This document shows, piece after piece, positions 36,172-44,452 of a DNA stretch of 64,000 bases. The notes beneath the pieces are model-generated. The model searched no databases and was not told the DNA's origin. It saw only the letters and a program-made list of their open reading frames with translations. Every line of letters starts with the position of its first letter. Position 1 is the first letter of the stretch. Source of the DNA: Lysobacterales bacterium. GTDB taxonomy: Bacteria; Pseudomonadota; Gammaproteobacteria; Xanthomonadales; SZUA-5. A program made the position numbers and the translations under genes. The stretch spans positions 1-64,000 of the forward strand of contig JABAQR010000004.1 in NCBI GenBank assembly GCA_019187485.1, written 5' to 3'.

Positions 36172-38559
36172 ATGGCGTTGCGCTGGTCTGGCCTGCTGCT
36201 GCTCGCGCACATCGCTTGCGTCGCTGCCGCGCAGGCGCAATCCGTGCAGTACCTGGACCTTCGGCTGCCGCCGCCCACGGCCGGCGATGGCGCCGCCGGG
36301 GACAACCTCGGCAACGCGCTGGCCATCGACGGCGATCTCGCGGTCGTCGCGGCTTTCGGCGACACCGTGGTCGCGCCGGGTGCGACCTTCGGCATCTCGC
36401 AGGGCTCGGTGACCGTGTTCGAGCGCGTCGGCGGCGACTGGCTGGCGCGACAGAAGCTGACGCCGGTGCCGGCCGGCGACAATGGCGACAATTTCGGCCT
36501 CTCGGTGGCATTGCGTTCCGGCACGCTCGCGATCGGTGCGCCGCGCACCTGGATGGGGGAAGCGCCCGAGGTCGGCAGCGTCCACATCTACTCGCTGACC
36601 GCGCAGGGTGGTGTCCTGCAAGAGGTGCTGCTGCCGGTGGTGGCCGATCCCGACCAGCGCTTCGGGACCGCGGTGGCGCTGTGGCAGGACTGGCTCGCGG
36701 TCGGCGCCGCGCGCGCGCAAGGCGGTCGCGTGGACCTGTTCCAACGCAACCAGGCCGGCTCCTACGAGTACCGGCAGAGTCTGGCGCCGCCACCGACGAG
36801 CGGCGAGGCGCGCTTCGGCACCGCGCTCGCGCTGGAGGGCGCGGAGTTGCTGATCGGCGCGCCGGCGATGGATGTGGGTGGAGCGGTGTTTCGCAGCGGG
36901 CTGGTGGGTGCGCAATGGACTCCACCGACGCGTCTGCCACTGCTTGCGCAGGCACAGTCCGGCCTTGGTGCCGCGGTGGTGCAGCATGCCGGCCTGGCGC
37001 TGGTGGGGGCGCCGATGGCCGGAGCTGGCGAGGTGCGCGTGCTCGCCCACCAGCTTGGCGGGTGGGCGCAGGTGGGCACGCTGGCACCGAGCGGATTGGC
37101 CGCGGGGGATCGCTTCGGCAGCGCACTCGCGCTGGACGGGGCGCGCGCCGCGGTCGCCGCCTCGGACGCACTCGCCAACGAAGGTCGCGTGCATGTGTAC
37201 GCGCGCAGCGGACAGACGCTGGCCGAGCAGCAGCGGCTCGACCGCGTGGACGGCGGATTGGGTGATCGCTTCGGCTCCGCACTTGCGCTCGTCGACGACG
37301 GCCTGCTGGTGGGTTCCGATCTCGACCGGATCGGGCCGAATTCCGGTCAGGGCGCTGCCTACTGGTATGTCGTGGCCGGTGCCACGCTGGATTTCCGCGC
37401 ACGCCTCGACAACGGCGATGGCGCCATGTACGACCGCTATGGAACTGCGGTCGCCACCGACGGCGAGATCGCCTTGATCGGCGCCTATGTCGAGGACACG
37501 CTGGCCGGCGCCGATGCGGGTGCCGCCCACTGGTATCGACGGGTCGATGGCCACTGGCAGTACGGTGGTCGCATCGATGCGCCGGATGCCGACGTCGAGG
37601 ACCGCTTCGGCATTGCGGTCGCGGTCGATGCCGACCGCATGGCGATCGGCGCCTACTGGAACGTCGTCGACGGCAATGTCGACCAGGGTTCGGTCTACGT
37701 CTACCGACGGGAAGGCGATGGCTGGGTCTTCGAGCAGGAACTGACCGACGCCAGCGGCGATCCCGGCGACTACTTCGGATTCGCGCTCGCGCTCGATGGC
37801 GACACGCTCGCCGTCGGCGCGCGCGGCGATTCCGACCTTGGGCTCGAACAGGGTGCGGTGCATGTGTACCGTCGGGCAGGTGTCGTGTGGCAACGCGAAG
37901 CGCGCTTCGACCTCGCGGCGGGCAATTCCCAGGCCTTTTTCGGCGCGAGTGTGGCGTTGGCGGCCGGACGCCTGCTGGTGGGCGCGCCGGGAGCGACGCT
38001 CGCCAACGGACCGCCTGCCTCGGGCGCGGCCTTCGCCTACCTCCGCGAAGGCGGCCAGTGGCGCGCGCTGGCTACCCTGAAATCGGGGCAGCCGCAGGCG
38101 AACGCGGCCTTCGGATTCGCGCTGGATGCGAGCGCGGACTACTGGCTGATCGGTGCCTTCCAGGAGCAGAACGCCCGCGGCGCCGCCTATCTGTTCCGGG
38201 CCGGAGACGCGGCGCTGGCGGCGGAACTGCGCGCGAATCAGCCGCAGCCGGGCGAGGGCCTCGCCGTCGCGGTCGCCCTCGCCGGCGACCGCGCCCTGCT
38301 CGGCGCCAGCGGTTTCGACCGCGACGGCGAGTTCGGTATTGGTCGTGTGCTGCAGTTCGAGGCGCGCGAGCGGGATTGGAAGCAGAACGCCGAACTGCAC
38401 GCCCGCGACGGCCGCGGTGGCGATGGATTCGGACGCGCCCTTGCGGTCGGCAGGGGCACGCTGATCGTTGGTGCCCCCGGTCGCGGCGAACAGAACCCGC
38501 TCGAAGGCATGGCCTACGTCGGCTTGATCGACGGATTGTTCCAGGATGGCTTCGAGTGA
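36172..38559 (+). CDS. Secreted FG-GAP (integrin alpha-like) repeat protein with GFE C-terminus
   Basis: A 795-aa exported protein of unknown partner. Signal peptide MALRWSGLLLLAHIACVAAAQAQS (1-24). I count 14 repeats of about 50 residues with the FG-GAP pattern (for example DRFGSALALDGARAAVAAS, DYFGFALALDGDTLAVGAR), enough for two seven-bladed propellers. Acidic loops (DxDxD-like: DAPDADVEDRFG, DASGDPGDYFG) could bind calcium. It ends FQDGFE, sharing FxxGFE with the convergent protease. The ribosome site touches the ATG; a TTG at 36166 is an alternative start. Confidence 0.85.
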   Translation: MALRWSGLLLLAHIACVAAAQAQSVQYLDLRLPPPTAGDGAAGDNLGNALAIDGDLAVVAAFGDTVVAPGATFGISQGSVTVFERVGGDWLARQKLTPVPAGDNGDNFGLSVALRSGTLAIGAPRTWMGEAPEVGSVHIYSLTAQGGVLQEVLLPVVADPDQRFGTAVALWQDWLAVGAARAQGGRVDLFQRNQAGSYEYRQSLAPPPTSGEARFGTALALEGAELLIGAPAMDVGGAVFRSGLVGAQWTPPTRLPLLAQAQSGLGAAVVQHAGLALVGAPMAGAGEVRVLAHQLGGWAQVGTLAPSGLAAGDRFGSALALDGARAAVAASDALANEGRVHVYARSGQTLAEQQRLDRVDGGLGDRFGSALALVDDGLLVGSDLDRIGPNSGQGAAYWYVVAGATLDFRARLDNGDGAMYDRYGTAVATDGEIALIGAYVEDTLAGADAGAAHWYRRVDGHWQYGGRIDAPDADVEDRFGIAVAVDADRMAIGAYWNVVDGNVDQGSVYVYRREGDGWVFEQELTDASGDPGDYFGFALALDGDTLAVGARGDSDLGLEQGAVHVYRRAGVVWQREARFDLAAGNSQAFFGASVALAAGRLLVGAPGATLANGPPASGAAFAYLREGGQWRALATLKSGQPQANAAFGFALDASADYWLIGAFQEQNARGAAYLFRAGDAALAAELRANQPQPGEGLAVAVALAGDRALLGASGFDRDGEFGIGRVLQFEARERDWKQNAELHARDGRGGDGFGRALAVGRGTLIVGAPGRGEQNPLEGMAYVGLIDGLFQDGFE

Positions 38560-38611
38560 TCCGGCGACAGCATGCGCTCCATGACGACGTCCCTGCGAAA
38601 CGGTGCGGGGA

Positions 38612-40318
38612 TTACTCGAAACCGTTCGCGAAGCCCGCCCAGCCGGTCTGCGGCAGGGTCAGCACATAGGTGCAGCGGCGGTTGGCCGGCACCGTGACGC
38701 CCGCGGTGTAGTTGTCGTACATCGTCTGCACTTCGGTCGGCGTGTAGCCGTCCGCGGCCGCGGCGTTGAGCACGGCCTGGGCGGCATCCTGCTGGTTGGT
38801 GCTGCTGCCGGTCATGGCCAGGCCGAGCAGGAAGGCGCGGTCCGAACGCTCACGGCCGATGCTGTTGTAGTTCAGCAGGTTGCAGGAAGCCCAGTATTGG
38901 CCGGCGGTGTGGATCGAGCCGGGAATCGTCTGGTAAGTCACCGACAGGTGGTAGTTGGTGATGCGGCCATTCCAGAACTCGTTGTGGCCGTCCCAGTTGA
39001 ACATCCAGAAGTAGGCCGGCTGGTTGCTGGGCCAGTGATTGAAGCTGCGGCTGTAGGAGGAGGCGAGGTAATCGCCCGTGCCCTCGGACAGGCCCTGGAC
39101 CTGCGACAGGCCGTGCGTGAGCCAGTCGTGGATGCCGTGGCCGAGTTCGTGCACCACCACGTCGGCGTCCTCCGCATCGTCGACCCCGCCTTCGCCGAAG
39201 GACAGTCGTCCCGATCCGGACGTGTAGAAGGAATTGTCGTCGCCGTTGACGCCGCGCGGGTCGTAGCGCACGCCGCCGGCATACTGGTAGGGCGCGATCG
39301 CCACATTCAACGTGTTGTTGATGTAGCGCATGAAGGTGTCGATGTGGTGGTACACATTGACGCCTTCGAAGTTGTCGTTGTCGCGGGTGTAGTTGAAGGT
39401 GCCGGAGGCGCTGGTGGCGCAAGTGCCGCTCGGCGACTCCCAGTCCAGGCAGGAGGCCCAGGGGCCGACCAGGGTCCACACGCCACCGGTCTGCGTGAGG
39501 TCGCGCAGCGGCACGCTGAAGATCTGCGCATCCAGTTGCGCCGTGCTGGCGTCGTTGCCGTCGGTGTAACCGGTGGTGCCGTAGGCCACCTGGGCACTCG
39601 ACAGCGGATCCGGATTGAAGGCGCGGCCAGTGCCGTCGAAGCGATGCGCGACGTCCTGCACGCGCACGACCTCCCCGCTGACCGCATCGACGAGCACCTC
39701 CCAACTGCCGCCGGGATAGCCCTGCGGTTCCAGTTGCAGACGCCACACGCGCAGCGCCGATTCGCGGATCCACCACATCTGGCGCGACTGCGCGTGGTGG
39801 AACTCGCTGCCGGCACCGAGGTACTGCGCGGCCGCGAGGATCGCTTCGGCGGCGTCGATGGTTGCCGCCGGCGCCGGCTCGTGGTCCAGCGGCTCCAGCA
39901 TCTGCTGCACCTGCAGGATCTTGCCGGCCGGCGTGACGCCGACCACCACTTCGCTGCCGTAGACCGGCAGCTCGCGCCACAGCTGCTCGAAGCGGACCAC
40001 GCTGAACGGGCCGAAATCGCGCACCAGGCGTGTGGCGAGGCCGAGGTCGGCGCTGCGCTGCAGGCCGAGGTCCGCTGCGCGCGCCTGCAGGAACTCGCGC
40101 GCCATGGTTTCGGCGTCGGCACGCGCCGCCACGAAGTCCGGCTGGTACAGCGCCAGCGGCCGCCCGCTGGCGGCGTCGAAGCGGCCTTCGGTGGTGGTCA
40201 TGGACGCCACTTCCGGCTCGACGCCCAATTGCAGCGGCGCCAGCAACGGGGCCTTGGCGGCGTGGGCGGACGCGGCCAGCGCGAGCAGGAGGGCGGAGGC
40301 GACGGGAGTCATGCGCAT
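38612..40318 (-). CDS. Secreted zinc metalloprotease (thermolysin/fungalysin-like) with GFE C-terminus
   Basis: A 568-aa exported protease. Signal peptide about 1-20 (ASALLLALAASAHA), then an FTP/PepSY-like propeptide region (AREFLQARAADLGL, GSEVVVGVTPAGKILQV, WEVLVDAVSGEVV) and a gluzincin catalytic domain. HELGH at 390-394 supplies two zinc ligands and the catalytic Glu391; Glu412 in SEGTGD (ExxxD pattern) is the probable third ligand. After the domain a short tail with one Cys ends in FANGFE. Closest known families are M4/M36; exact family and substrate are unknown. A second ATG at 40312 is possible. Confidence 0.85.
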   Translation of the reverse strand: MRMTPVASALLLALAASAHAAKAPLLAPLQLGVEPEVASMTTTEGRFDAASGRPLALYQPDFVAARADAETMAREFLQARAADLGLQRSADLGLATRLVRDFGPFSVVRFEQLWRELPVYGSEVVVGVTPAGKILQVQQMLEPLDHEPAPAATIDAAEAILAAAQYLGAGSEFHHAQSRQMWWIRESALRVWRLQLEPQGYPGGSWEVLVDAVSGEVVRVQDVAHRFDGTGRAFNPDPLSSAQVAYGTTGYTDGNDASTAQLDAQIFSVPLRDLTQTGGVWTLVGPWASCLDWESPSGTCATSASGTFNYTRDNDNFEGVNVYHHIDTFMRYINNTLNVAIAPYQYAGGVRYDPRGVNGDDNSFYTSGSGRLSFGEGGVDDAEDADVVVHELGHGIHDWLTHGLSQVQGLSEGTGDYLASSYSRSFNHWPSNQPAYFWMFNWDGHNEFWNGRITNYHLSVTYQTIPGSIHTAGQYWASCNLLNYNSIGRERSDRAFLLGLAMTGSSTNQQDAAQAVLNAAAADGYTPTEVQTMYDNYTAGVTVPANRRCTYVLTLPQTGWAGFANGFE

Positions 40319-41233: not shown

Positions 41234-44200
41234 ATGCGCAAACCCCGCATCTCCCTGGCCGGTGCGCTGACGCTCGCCGCAAGCGCTGCCGCGGCGCAGG
41301 GCGCGCCGCGTTTCGACGCCGGCACCGTCTCCGGCCTTTCGGCGCGCAACATCGGTTCGGCGACCATGAGCGGGCGCATCGCCGCGCTCGCCGCGCACGT
41401 CGAGGAGGGCAAGACCACGATCTACGTCGGCGCGGCCAGCGGTGGCGTCTGGAAGTCGATCGACGGCGGCACCAGTTTCAAGCCGGTGTTCGACAAGCAG
41501 CCGGTGCAGTCGATCGGCGCGATCACCCTCGATCCATCGAACCCGAAGATCGTCTGGGTCGGCACCGGCGAACCCTGGGTGCGCAACTCGGTGTCGCTCG
41601 GCAATGGCGTCTACCGCAGCACCGACGGCGGCGAGACCTGGACCCACCTGGGCCTTGCCGGCAGCGAGCGCATCGGCAAGATTCTCGTGCACCCGAAGGA
41701 CGGCAACATCGCCTGGGTGTGCGCCCCCGGCCGACTGTGGGGAGACTCGGCCGAGCGTGGCCTCTACCAGACCCGCGATGCGGGCAAGAGCTGGAAGTTG
41801 CTGCTGAAGGGACCGAACCCGTCCACCGGCTGCTCGGGCCTGACCCTCGACCCCACCAATCCGGATCGGCTGCTGGTCGGTACCTGGGACTTCCGTCGCC
41901 AGCCGTGGACCTTCCGCTCCGGCGGCGAGGGCGAGACCGCCTTCAGCGGCAGTGGACTGTATGTCAGTGAGGACGGCGGTGCGAATTTCCGCGAACTCGA
42001 CATGGCATCCGCACCGGGTCTGCCGAAGAAGCCCTGGGGTCGCGTCGAGGTGGAGATCGCGCCGTCCGACCCGAAGATCGTCTACGCCTTCATCGAGGCC
42101 GGCAAGGACAGCGCGCTGTATCGCTCCGCCGACGGCGGCAAGACCTTCGAGCAGCGCGACAAGAGCCAGATGATGGTCTGGCGGCCTTTCTACTTCGCCA
42201 AGCTGGTGGTCGACCCGTCGAATGCGGACCGCCTGTTCAAGATGAACCTGCGATTGATCGTTTCCGAAGACGGCGGCAAGAGTTTCTCGGATGCCGCCGG
42301 CGGCACCCATGCCGATTCGCACGACCTGTGGATCAACCCGGCCAATCCGAAAGACCTGATCCTCGGCGACGACGGCGGTATCTGGTACAGCCGCGACGGC
42401 GGCGGGCGCTGGTGGAAGGGAGACAACCTGCCGATCAGCCAGTTCTACCACGTCGCGGTGGACAACCAGGACCCCTACAAGGTCTACGGCGGCCTGCAGG
42501 ACAACAGCTCCTGGGTCGGCGATTCGGCTTATCCCGGCGGCATCAGCAATTCGCGCTGGGAAAATCTTTATGGCGGCGATGGTTTCTGGGTGCTGCCGGA
42601 TGCGCGCGACCCGAACATCGTCTACGCCGAGTTCCAGGGCGGCAACATCGCGCGCATCGACCGGCGCACCAAACAGGCGCGCGACATCCAGCCGAAGTCG
42701 GACCGCGCGGGGGAGAAGCTGCGCTACAACTGGAATGCGCCGATCCACCAGAGCCCGAACGACCCCGGCACCATCTACCTCGGTGCGCAGTACCTGTTCC
42801 GTACCCGCGACCAGGGCCAGACCTGGGAGAAGATCTCGCCCGATTTGTCCACCGATGACCCGCGCAAGCAGGAACAGGAGAAATCCGGCGGCATCACCGT
42901 CGACAACTCCTCGGCGGAGATGCACACCACGATCTACTCGATCTCCGAATCCCCGCGCGACCGCAACACCATCTGGGTCGGCACCGACGACGGCAACGTG
43001 CAACTGACCCGCGACGGCGGTCGCAACTGGAGCAATGTGGCGAAGAACCTGAAGGGGCTGCCGAAGGACAACTGGATCTCGTGGGTGGAAGCCTCGCGTC
43101 ACGACGTCGCGACTGCCTTCGTGACCGTGGATCGTCACGCCTTCAGCGACTTCGCGCCCTACGCCTACGTGACCCACGACCACGGGCGCAACTGGCAGCG
43201 CATCGCCGACGCCTCCCAGGGCATCCGCGGCCACGCGCATGTGATTCGCCAGGATCCGGTCGACCAGGATCTGCTCTACCTCGGCACCGAGTTCGGCCTG
43301 TGGATCAGCATCGACGGTGGCGCGCACTGGGCCGAGTTCAAGGGCGGCAACTTCCCGTCGGTGGCGGTGCGCGACATCGCCATCCAGGAGCGCGAGCACG
43401 ATCTCGTGATTGCTACCCACGGACGTGGCATCTGGATCATCGACGACATCTCCACGCTGCGCGCGATCGACGACGCGGTGCTCGCCTCGGAAGCCGCCTT
43501 CCTGCCCTCGCGGCCGGTGCAGCAGCGCATTGGCGGCATCGGTGGCTCCTCCGAGGGCGACGCCCGCTTCGTCGGTCAGAACCCGCAGGGCGATGCGGTG
43601 ATCAGTTACTACCAGCGCACCCGCCACCTGTTCGGCGAACTCAAGCTCGAGATCCTCGACAGCGCCGGCAAGGTGGTCGACACCATTCCGGCGAGCAAGC
43701 GCCGCGGCATCAATCGCGTCACCTGGTCGATGCGACTGCAGCCGCCGCGGGTGCCGAAGGCAGCACAACTGGCTTTTGCCGGCACCCAGGGACCGCGCGT
43801 GCTGCCGGGCACGTATACCGTGCGTCTGACCAAGAACAAGCGGGTGTACGAGACGAAGCTCGAGGTCGGCCTGGACCGCCGCGCCGAGTACACGGTGGAG
43901 GATCGCAAGGCGCAGTTCGCCGCCAGCATGCGCGTGCATGCGCTGTTCGGGCGCATGACCGCGTTGACCGACCGCATCGGCTACCTGCAACAGATGGCCG
44001 GCGGCATCGGCGGCCAGCTCCCGGAGAAGGACGGCTTGCGCAAGCGCCTGGGTGTGTTCAACGAGGAGGCCGAGGCGATCCGCAAGCAGATCGTGGCCAC
44101 CACCGAGGGTGGCGCGATCACCGGCGAGGAGCGCCTGCGCGAACACACCGACCAGATCTACAGCGCGATCATGGGCTACGAAGGCAGGCCGGCGGCCACG

Positions 44201-44452
44201 CTCGACCGGCGCACCGTGGTGCTCGAGGGTGAACTGGATGCGATCGCCGCGGAGTTCGACCGCCTGTGCGAGAAATCCCTGCCGAAGCTCAATGGCGAGC
44301 TGAAAAAACGCCAGATGCCGGAACTCGCGTGGCCGCCGAAAGGGCCGATGCCCGCTGCAGCGGACGCCCGCAGTGCCGGTGGCGACGTGCGCGGTTTCGC
44401 GGCGCCGAAGCGCTACTACCGGCATCCTTTGTCCGGACTGCGGCTGTACTGA
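41234..44452 (+). CDS. Secreted VPS10/sortilin-type beta-propeller protein with Asp-box repeats
   Basis: A 1072-aa exported protein. Signal peptide about 1-22 (ISLAGALTLAASAAAAQG). I count 11 Asp-box motifs (SxDxGxxW type, for example RSTDGGETW, LTRDGGRNW, ISIDGGAHW) between about residues 65 and 700, as in sortilin-like and xyloglucanase-type propellers. The region after about 760 is a beta-sandwich-like FlgD-type segment and helices. Although often named glycosyl hydrolase, no catalytic residues can be assigned. The ATG at 41234 has GGAG six bases upstream; an ATG at 41216 overlaps the previous stop. Confidence 0.85.
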   Translation: MRKPRISLAGALTLAASAAAAQGAPRFDAGTVSGLSARNIGSATMSGRIAALAAHVEEGKTTIYVGAASGGVWKSIDGGTSFKPVFDKQPVQSIGAITLDPSNPKIVWVGTGEPWVRNSVSLGNGVYRSTDGGETWTHLGLAGSERIGKILVHPKDGNIAWVCAPGRLWGDSAERGLYQTRDAGKSWKLLLKGPNPSTGCSGLTLDPTNPDRLLVGTWDFRRQPWTFRSGGEGETAFSGSGLYVSEDGGANFRELDMASAPGLPKKPWGRVEVEIAPSDPKIVYAFIEAGKDSALYRSADGGKTFEQRDKSQMMVWRPFYFAKLVVDPSNADRLFKMNLRLIVSEDGGKSFSDAAGGTHADSHDLWINPANPKDLILGDDGGIWYSRDGGGRWWKGDNLPISQFYHVAVDNQDPYKVYGGLQDNSSWVGDSAYPGGISNSRWENLYGGDGFWVLPDARDPNIVYAEFQGGNIARIDRRTKQARDIQPKSDRAGEKLRYNWNAPIHQSPNDPGTIYLGAQYLFRTRDQGQTWEKISPDLSTDDPRKQEQEKSGGITVDNSSAEMHTTIYSISESPRDRNTIWVGTDDGNVQLTRDGGRNWSNVAKNLKGLPKDNWISWVEASRHDVATAFVTVDRHAFSDFAPYAYVTHDHGRNWQRIADASQGIRGHAHVIRQDPVDQDLLYLGTEFGLWISIDGGAHWAEFKGGNFPSVAVRDIAIQEREHDLVIATHGRGIWIIDDISTLRAIDDAVLASEAAFLPSRPVQQRIGGIGGSSEGDARFVGQNPQGDAVISYYQRTRHLFGELKLEILDSAGKVVDTIPASKRRGINRVTWSMRLQPPRVPKAAQLAFAGTQGPRVLPGTYTVRLTKNKRVYETKLEVGLDRRAEYTVEDRKAQFAASMRVHALFGRMTALTDRIGYLQQMAGGIGGQLPEKDGLRKRLGVFNEEAEAIRKQIVATTEGGAITGEERLREHTDQIYSAIMGYEGRPAATLDRRTVVLEGELDAIAAEFDRLCEKSLPKLNGELKKRQMPELAWPPKGPMPAAADARSAGGDVRGFAAPKRYYRHPLSGLRLY

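What the first reader, a model, noticed from the sequence alone, without database searches (positions are those of the whole stretch)
38530..38660. Two unrelated secreted proteins end in the same FxxGFE tail
The FG-GAP protein ends FQDGFE and the convergent metalloprotease ends FANGFE. The folds are unrelated, both are exported, and in each case the motif is the extreme C-terminus, after a linker-like segment. Short shared C-terminal tails on unrelated exported proteins usually mark a sorting, secretion or anchoring signal (PEP-CTERM and the type IX signal are precedents). I know of no named GFE-type tail, so this may be an undescribed signal of Xanthomonadales-like bacteria. There is no following helix or basic end, so it is not a sortase- or exosortase-like tripartite signal.
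Basis: partly seen in the sequence, partly recalled or inferred. Interest (0 to 1): 0.75.

Follow-up and report, generated by a model that had tools for sequence, protein, structure and literature searches.

The report
Undescribed FxxGFE tag on exported proteins
Dozens of unrelated exported proteins in this bacterium and its relatives, and in a distant phylum, carry the same short tag (D-x-[VIL]-F-x-[DN]-G-F-[DE]), usually at the very end; it looks like an undescribed address label for crossing or staying on the outer membrane, and its presence tracks particular type II secretion genes.

Summary
Confirmed, and larger than reported. The two window proteins end FQDGFE* and FANGFE*. Their genome holds 32 FxxGFE-stop sites against 1 for the reversed pattern. 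In a 0.8-Mb sample the tails sit on about 29 unrelated families, enriched for signal peptides, with freely varying codons.

Counts far exceed controls in most families of the order, switch off sharply within two families, and are near background elsewhere in Pseudomonadota. The motif is not strictly C-terminal: in relatives it also follows signal peptides, lies in linkers, or has 1-18 trailing residues. Genus g13 uses FxDRFE, a variant guessed and then found. Acidobacteriota carry a longer tail, [IL]FxDGFESGDTSAWSxxxP*, 53-130 per genome; homologues of the window protease carry the short tail in one phylum and the long one in the other.

No family model or paper matched, and the tripartite sortase architecture is absent.

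Best mechanism (inferred): a tag read after inner-membrane export, at an outer-membrane step, probably type II secretion. All 44 motif-rich genomes tested keep a lipoprotein gene beside an Xps-type operon; two motif-negative clades lost it with the motif, and one genome lost both along with all GspD. Exceptions exist; export versus anchoring is open.

The parts
36172..38559 (+). FG-GAP repeat protein (795 aa), exported, carrying the tag at its C-terminus
   Evidence: Pfam FG-GAP_2, 12 stretches, E 1.9e-88; gene call; signal peptide judged by eye
38530..38559 (+). tag D-G-L-F-Q-D-G-F-E plus stop codon TGA
   Evidence: sequence; matches the consensus D-x-[VIL]-F-x-[DN]-G-F-[DE]; genome pattern hit C18:38539-38559
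38612..40318 (-). M36/M4-like metalloprotease precursor (568 aa) with signal peptide, FTP propeptide motif and HELGH site, carrying the tag at its C-terminus
   Evidence: Pfam FTP and Peptidase_M36; 46% identical over 561 aa to Acidobacteriota L171 1104-2834, which ends in the long tail
38612..38632 (-). tag core F-A-N-G-F-E plus stop codon TAA
   Evidence: sequence; genome pattern hit C18:38612-38632
38560..38611 (.). 52-base gap between the two convergent tagged genes
   Evidence: coordinates

Best explanation
The FxxGFE end is one form of a short linear tag, D-x-[VIL]-F-x-[DN]-G-F-[DE], joined to exported proteins by flexible linkers, mostly at the C-terminus, sometimes just after the signal peptide or between domains. 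Proteins first cross the inner membrane (mostly Sec; at least one tagged protein has a Tat-like start). The exposed tag is then bound by a receptor acting at the outer-membrane step, most likely a type II secretion system or a factor encoded with one, which releases or displays the folded protein. Shown: the tag, its enrichment on exported proteins, its variants, its counterpart in a second phylum, and its co-loss with type II secretion genes. Inferred: receptor binding, and export or display as the outcome. I put about 0.95 on a genuine functional tag of exported proteins and about 0.45 on type II secretion as its reader; the score given here is for the whole statement.
For: Tag: counts far above reversed-pattern controls; signal-peptide enrichment, 29 families, codon variation; extra conserved positions. 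Position-flexible. Equivalent tails on homologous proteins of two phyla. Type II link: GspD in 179 of 180 order genomes, the exception (G026) being motif-poor in a mostly motif-rich family. The Xps-type operon of motif-rich genomes runs on into LipX, a secreted protein, a parvulin and an ABC exporter, but ends at gspD in the motif-negative f2 and f12 genomes read here. LipX in 44 of 44 motif-rich genomes, 0 of 10 motif-poor f2, 1 of 11 motif-poor f12. The f2 and f12 negatives are separate clades in a T2SS tree. A variant motif sought in LipX-bearing, GFE-poor genus g13 was found there, at C-termini. Long-tail Acidobacteriota genomes examined have a type II-like locus.
Against: Correlation only, with about three independent co-losses and no statistics corrected for phylogeny. 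LipX block without motif: G055 and f8 g11 (G015, G025), and it is kept in motif-poor G052, G081 and G108. No LipX detected in Acidobacteriota. Many motif-negative genomes have type II systems, so a T2SS alone is not enough. Two T2SSs coexist in motif-rich genomes and I cannot tell which matters. The signal-peptide predictor and gene caller are home-made and crude. Motif-rich status was set at 15 or more pattern hits, chosen after seeing the counts.
Confidence: 0.45

Rival explanations
1. Surface-anchoring tag: tagged proteins leave by a general route and the tag is then held by, or covalently joined to, a cell-surface glycan exported by the ABC transporter encoded beside LipX, by analogy with glycolipid attachment in type IX systems.
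For: An ABC-2 permease, ABC ATPase and glycosyl/methyltransferase genes follow the LipX block in motif-rich genomes from several families. Many tagged proteins are adhesin- or beta-helix-like as well as enzymes.
Against: No transpeptidase candidate was found. The tag also occurs at mature N-termini and in linkers, awkward for C-terminal transfer. G055 keeps the whole block without the motif.
Confidence: 0.2
2. The tag is a real receptor ligand of exported proteins, but the reader is unrelated to type II secretion (a periplasmic chaperone, an extracellular matrix or another receptor), and the link with T2SS genes reflects shared ancestry of a few clades.
For: Few independent co-losses; exceptions in f8 and f12; different T2SS-type loci in the two phyla.
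Against: Two separate clades lost the same gene block together with the motif, and the genome without GspD is motif-poor.
Confidence: 0.25
3. The tails are worn remains of a lectin-like (LamG-type) domain that starts with the same words, without a function of their own.
For: In Chloroflexi and other phyla the same words begin a sandwich domain of about 200 aa; F, G, F, E, G, W are its invariant columns and the motif lies at its first strand.
Against: Dozens of unrelated proteins per genome end exactly there with no trace of the rest of the domain; the core is kept despite codon turnover; genus-level on/off; Acidobacteriota tails end mostly at one fixed length. I did not look for intact copies of the domain in the order.
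Confidence: 0.07
4. DNA-level or chance artefact (repeat element, codon bias, spurious frames).
For: High-GC genomes give long spurious frames; no positive evidence beyond that.
Against: Reversed-pattern controls are low, synonymous codons vary, signal-peptide proteins are enriched, and the tail is kept in homologues across phyla.
Confidence: 0.02

Closest known systems
GlyGly-CTERM / rhombosortase (Haft and Varghese 2011, PMC3237569)
   Same: C-terminal signal on proteins otherwise unrelated to each other, several per genome, patchy among Gram-negatives; its authors also note co-occurrence with type II secretion, without a particular T2SS subclass.
   Different: That signal is motif + transmembrane helix + basic cluster. 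Here there is no helix or basic end, the motif can sit elsewhere, and there are up to about 130 copies per genome.
PEP-CTERM/exosortase, LPXTG/sortase, MYXO-CTERM/myxosortase (PMC11980579)
   Same: Many-proteins-one-tag logic.
   Different: All are tripartite membrane-anchored signals; this tag is not.
Type IX secretion C-terminal domain
   Same: C-terminal label on Sec-exported proteins, and an outer-membrane step.
   Different: From general knowledge that label is a folded domain of about 80 aa in Bacteroidota. The window protease matches the NCBIfam model T9SSA_dep_M36 at only 15 bits against a cut-off of 885.
Type II secretion substrates
   Same: Signal peptide plus large folded enzymes and surface proteins; both Sec and Tat routes.
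   Different: No general linear signal is accepted; recruitment is described as elusive and probably structural (abstract of PMC7949064). A portable linear tag would be new.
LamG/concanavalin-like lectin domain beginning FxDGFESGNLSxW
   Same: Same invariant residues F, G, F, E at the start.
   Different: There it opens a sandwich of about 200 aa; here it stands alone, mostly at protein ends.

Membership tests
Tripartite sorting signals (GlyGly-CTERM, PEP-CTERM, LPXTG, MYXO-CTERM) | signature motif followed by a transmembrane helix and a basic cluster at the C-terminus | tested here: not met
   tails end at or within about 20 residues after the motif with no hydrophobic helix or basic end
Tripartite sorting signals (GlyGly-CTERM, PEP-CTERM, LPXTG, MYXO-CTERM) | cognate rhombosortase, exosortase or sortase co-occurs | not tested
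Type IX secretion substrates | match to T9SS-dependent family or C-terminal domain models | tested here: not met
   NCBIfam scan of both window proteins: only a 15-bit match, far below cut-off
Type II secretion substrates | N-terminal export signal | tested here: met
   enrichment in three order genomes and in the Acidobacteriota loci; crude predictor
Type II secretion substrates | a type II system in the same genome | tested here: met
   GspD over threshold E in every motif-rich order genome searched; type II-like locus with GspE, GspF, GspD and pseudopilins in Acidobacteriota loci L297-L300
Type II secretion substrates | release from the cell depends on the T2SS | not testable with these tools
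   needs a gene removal and fractionation
   29 single-linkage families among 32 tail proteins; p = 1e-6 for signal peptides
   post-signal-peptide, linker and trailing-residue positions in G109 and G149

The most novel reading that the evidence does not exclude
The tag is a portable linear recognition signal of a type II secretion system (the GspC-type one or the Xps-type one with LipX), used in two phyla: a first general linear address for a machine whose signal has resisted definition.
Probability: 0.3. Interest if true: 0.93.

Novelty: new variant of a known kind. Interest (0 to 1): 0.8.

Why it matters
If true, one short label marks dozens to over a hundred exported proteins per genome in many environmental bacteria of two phyla, so much of their exported proteome can be read from sequence. 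It comes with a small set of candidate partner genes and a portable peptide with which the open question of how type II secretion picks its cargo can be tested directly. It may also show how the first strand of a domain became a free-standing tag.

Tried and rejected
Strict FxxGFE-stop as the whole definition: undercounts badly (G109: 10 strict, 129-137 loose). Genes beside tag genes as the source of a dedicated enzyme: only widespread families such as ECF sigma plus Ser/Thr kinase. DNA repeat or chance: rejected by controls and codons. Tripartite sortase-like signal: rejected. LipX as a universal reader: not supported, absent in Acidobacteriota and present in motif-poor f8 genomes. A missed variant tag in f8 g11: none seen in about 420 kb of G025. 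AlphaFold of the protease with one homologue: too poor to use (pLDDT 38). Literature searches by motif strings and by sorting terms found no description; the library holds open-licence papers only. In Acidobacteriota the secretin hits near E 1e-58 carry an N-terminus that looks AMIN-like to me, so probably PilQ; the type II-like GspD is a separate protein of about 800 aa.
Full report
1. The observation. Both ends are as described. The FG-GAP protein (36172-38559, +) ends GLIDGLFQDGFE* and the convergent M36-type protease (38612-40318, -) ends TGWAGFANGFE*. In the window's genome (G000, 3.83 Mb) the DNA pattern for F-x-x-G-F-E-stop occurs 32 times; the same pattern read backwards occurs once. 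In 0.8 Mb of that genome (stretches around the hits plus others) I called 599 genes: 29 strict tail proteins, 20 of them with a signal peptide by a crude rule, against 138 of 570 others (Fisher p = 1e-6). Several of the nine misses show a signal peptide by eye, some at another start. Allowing two trailing residues gives 32 proteins in 29 single-linkage families at 1e-8. The tails use synonymous codons freely (28 distinct 21-mers among 29). So this is a protein-level tag on unrelated exported proteins.

2. Distribution. All nine genomes of the family have it (11-58 strict hits, controls 0-2). In the order, strict and loose patterns switch on and off by genus: in family f2 two genera have 71 and 99 loose hits and the others 0-5; in f12 genera g15, g25, g54 and g64 have 34-129 and the others mostly 0-8. 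In other Gammaproteobacteria and in the phylum sample counts stay near control level, somewhat higher in large genomes. I take the order to be Xanthomonadales because one member, G130, carries an Xps-type operon and a second type II system as Xanthomonas does (from general knowledge); genome names were withheld.

3. Broader than a C-terminus. In G109 and G149 the motif is D-x-[VIL]-F-x-[DN]-G-F-[DE], followed by 0-18 residues, or placed directly after a signal peptide (L089...ARPVFADDFIFGDGFDGP), or in linkers between domains. The residue before F ([VIL] in 59 of 63) and the D three before it (37 of 63) were not part of the search, so they are independent signs of a real motif. A protein with a twin-arginine-like N-terminus carries it too (L082 7768-9159), so the tag is probably read after export by either route.

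4. A second phylum. From memory I suspected a related FxDGFESGD...W sequence elsewhere. Six of seven such genomes carry 53-130 copies with controls 0; Acanthopleuribacter has 2. Homologous pairs link the phyla: the window's own protease and L171 (46% over 561 aa) end FANGFE* and FSDGFESGDTTAWSSVTP*; L034 and L176 (62% over 364 aa) end FANGFE* and FADGFETGNVSGWSSTVP*. In other phyla the same words start a domain of about 200 aa, predicted as a lectin-like sandwich with the motif at its first strand. Origin of the tag from such a strand is an inference.

5. Partner genes. GspD occurs in 179 of 180 order genomes; the exception, G026, is motif-poor in a mostly motif-rich family. Several motif-rich genomes were seen to have two type II systems: a GspC-type one, usually beside trx and rhlB, and an Xps-type operon. 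In the latter, gspD is followed by a small lipoprotein (LipX, my name), a secreted protein of about 500 aa without Pfam match, a parvulin, and an ABC-2 exporter with glycosyl/methyltransferase genes. The motif-negative f2 and f12 genomes read here have the operon ending at gspD, apart from G055. LipX was present in 44 of 44 motif-rich genomes (39 with 15 or more GFE-type hits, five g13 genomes rich in the R/S variant), in 0 of 10 motif-poor f2, 1 of 11 motif-poor f12 and 8 of 9 other motif-poor order genomes (all but G026), and in 0 of 6 Acidobacteriota. A tree of GspD, F, K and L shows the f2 and f12 negatives as separate clades, each on a long stem: at least two independent co-losses, three with G026. 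The long stems may reflect general rates; that was not controlled.

6. A prediction. LipX-bearing but GFE-poor genomes of genus g13 led me to search F-x-[DN]-[RS]-F-[DE]: five g13 genomes have 17-53 copies (controls 0-3), and in about 0.42 Mb of G103 they sit at C-termini (FRDRFEP*, FLDRFEDNSGN*, FSDRFEFLPF*). G011, G012, G023 and G149 also show raised R/S counts. In f8 g11 (G025) no variant was seen.

7. Mechanism. Best supported: an exposed linear tag read at the outer-membrane step, most likely by a type II secretion system or a factor encoded with one. The tag and the correlations are shown; reading, export and display are inferred. In f12 the GspD scores fall into two groups: motif-rich genomes 3e-170 or better, with G036 at 1.4e-168; motif-poor genomes about 1e-139 to 1e-147, except G229. 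Two discordant genomes, G055 (LipX block kept, no high-scoring GspD, no motif) and G229 (GspC-type system in another gene setting, no LipX, no motif), would fit a need for both systems, but these are two cases, and G081 (f8) has a high-scoring GspD and LipX but few motifs. Acidobacteriota lack detectable LipX but have a type II-like locus with GspE, GspF, GspD and pseudopilins. Anchoring to an exported glycan is the main functional rival.

8. Novelty. No NCBIfam or Pfam match covers the tails of the two window proteins; the Acidobacteriota tails were not scanned (one search failed). Open-licence full-text searches found no description. The nearest described signals are tripartite or are folded domains. 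I file it as a new variant of a known kind (sorting tags); it would be the first of its kind if it proves to be the linear signal of a type II system, whose substrate recruitment is still described as elusive (PMC7949064).

Noticed in passing
L237 (G000:C12:46001-66000); LipX at G000:C12:56408-56824: The window genome's own Xps-type T2SS operon runs straight into LipX and the unknown ~500-aa secreted protein; that protein family (alignment A1) has no Pfam match, is conserved across families of the order, and its role is unknown.
   Followed up: partly
window 41234-44452 (+): Large exported repeat protein related (23-35% identity) to proteins L160 and L143 of Acidobacteriota and in the same family as tagged proteins L042 and L050 of this genome, but ending PLSGLRLY without the tag.
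   Followed up: no
L217 (G229:C47:11001-30000): A small f12 genome holds a GspC-type T2SS in a different gene setting from the trx-rhlB-linked one, without motif or LipX; possibly acquired separately.
   Followed up: partly
L297-L300 (Acidobacteriota): A conserved locus with GspF, GspE, proteins placed and sized like PilM/N/O, a GspD of ~800 aa with a repeat-like N-terminus, and pseudopilins: a type II-like system with pilus-like parts.
   Followed up: partly
L084 and L076 (G109): Two proteins with the motif directly after the signal peptide continue with a similar sequence (...SRFLTQATFGPS / ...SRFLAQATFGAA), which I recall as DUF1800-like; the motif may be at a fixed N-terminal place in that family.
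   Followed up: no
tree: Motif-negative f2 and f12 T2SS clades sit on stems of 0.57 and 0.58, longer than their motif-bearing sisters; whether this is specific to the secretion system was not tested.
   Followed up: no
L039 3429-6854, and Acidobacteriota loci L117, L113, L124: ECF sigma factor plus Ser/Thr kinase genes recur near tagged genes in both phyla; probably just abundant families.
   Followed up: partly
L038 17742-19898 (G000): Subtilase-like protein with two tags in tandem at its end: FGNGFESANDDLFTDGFE*.
   Followed up: no
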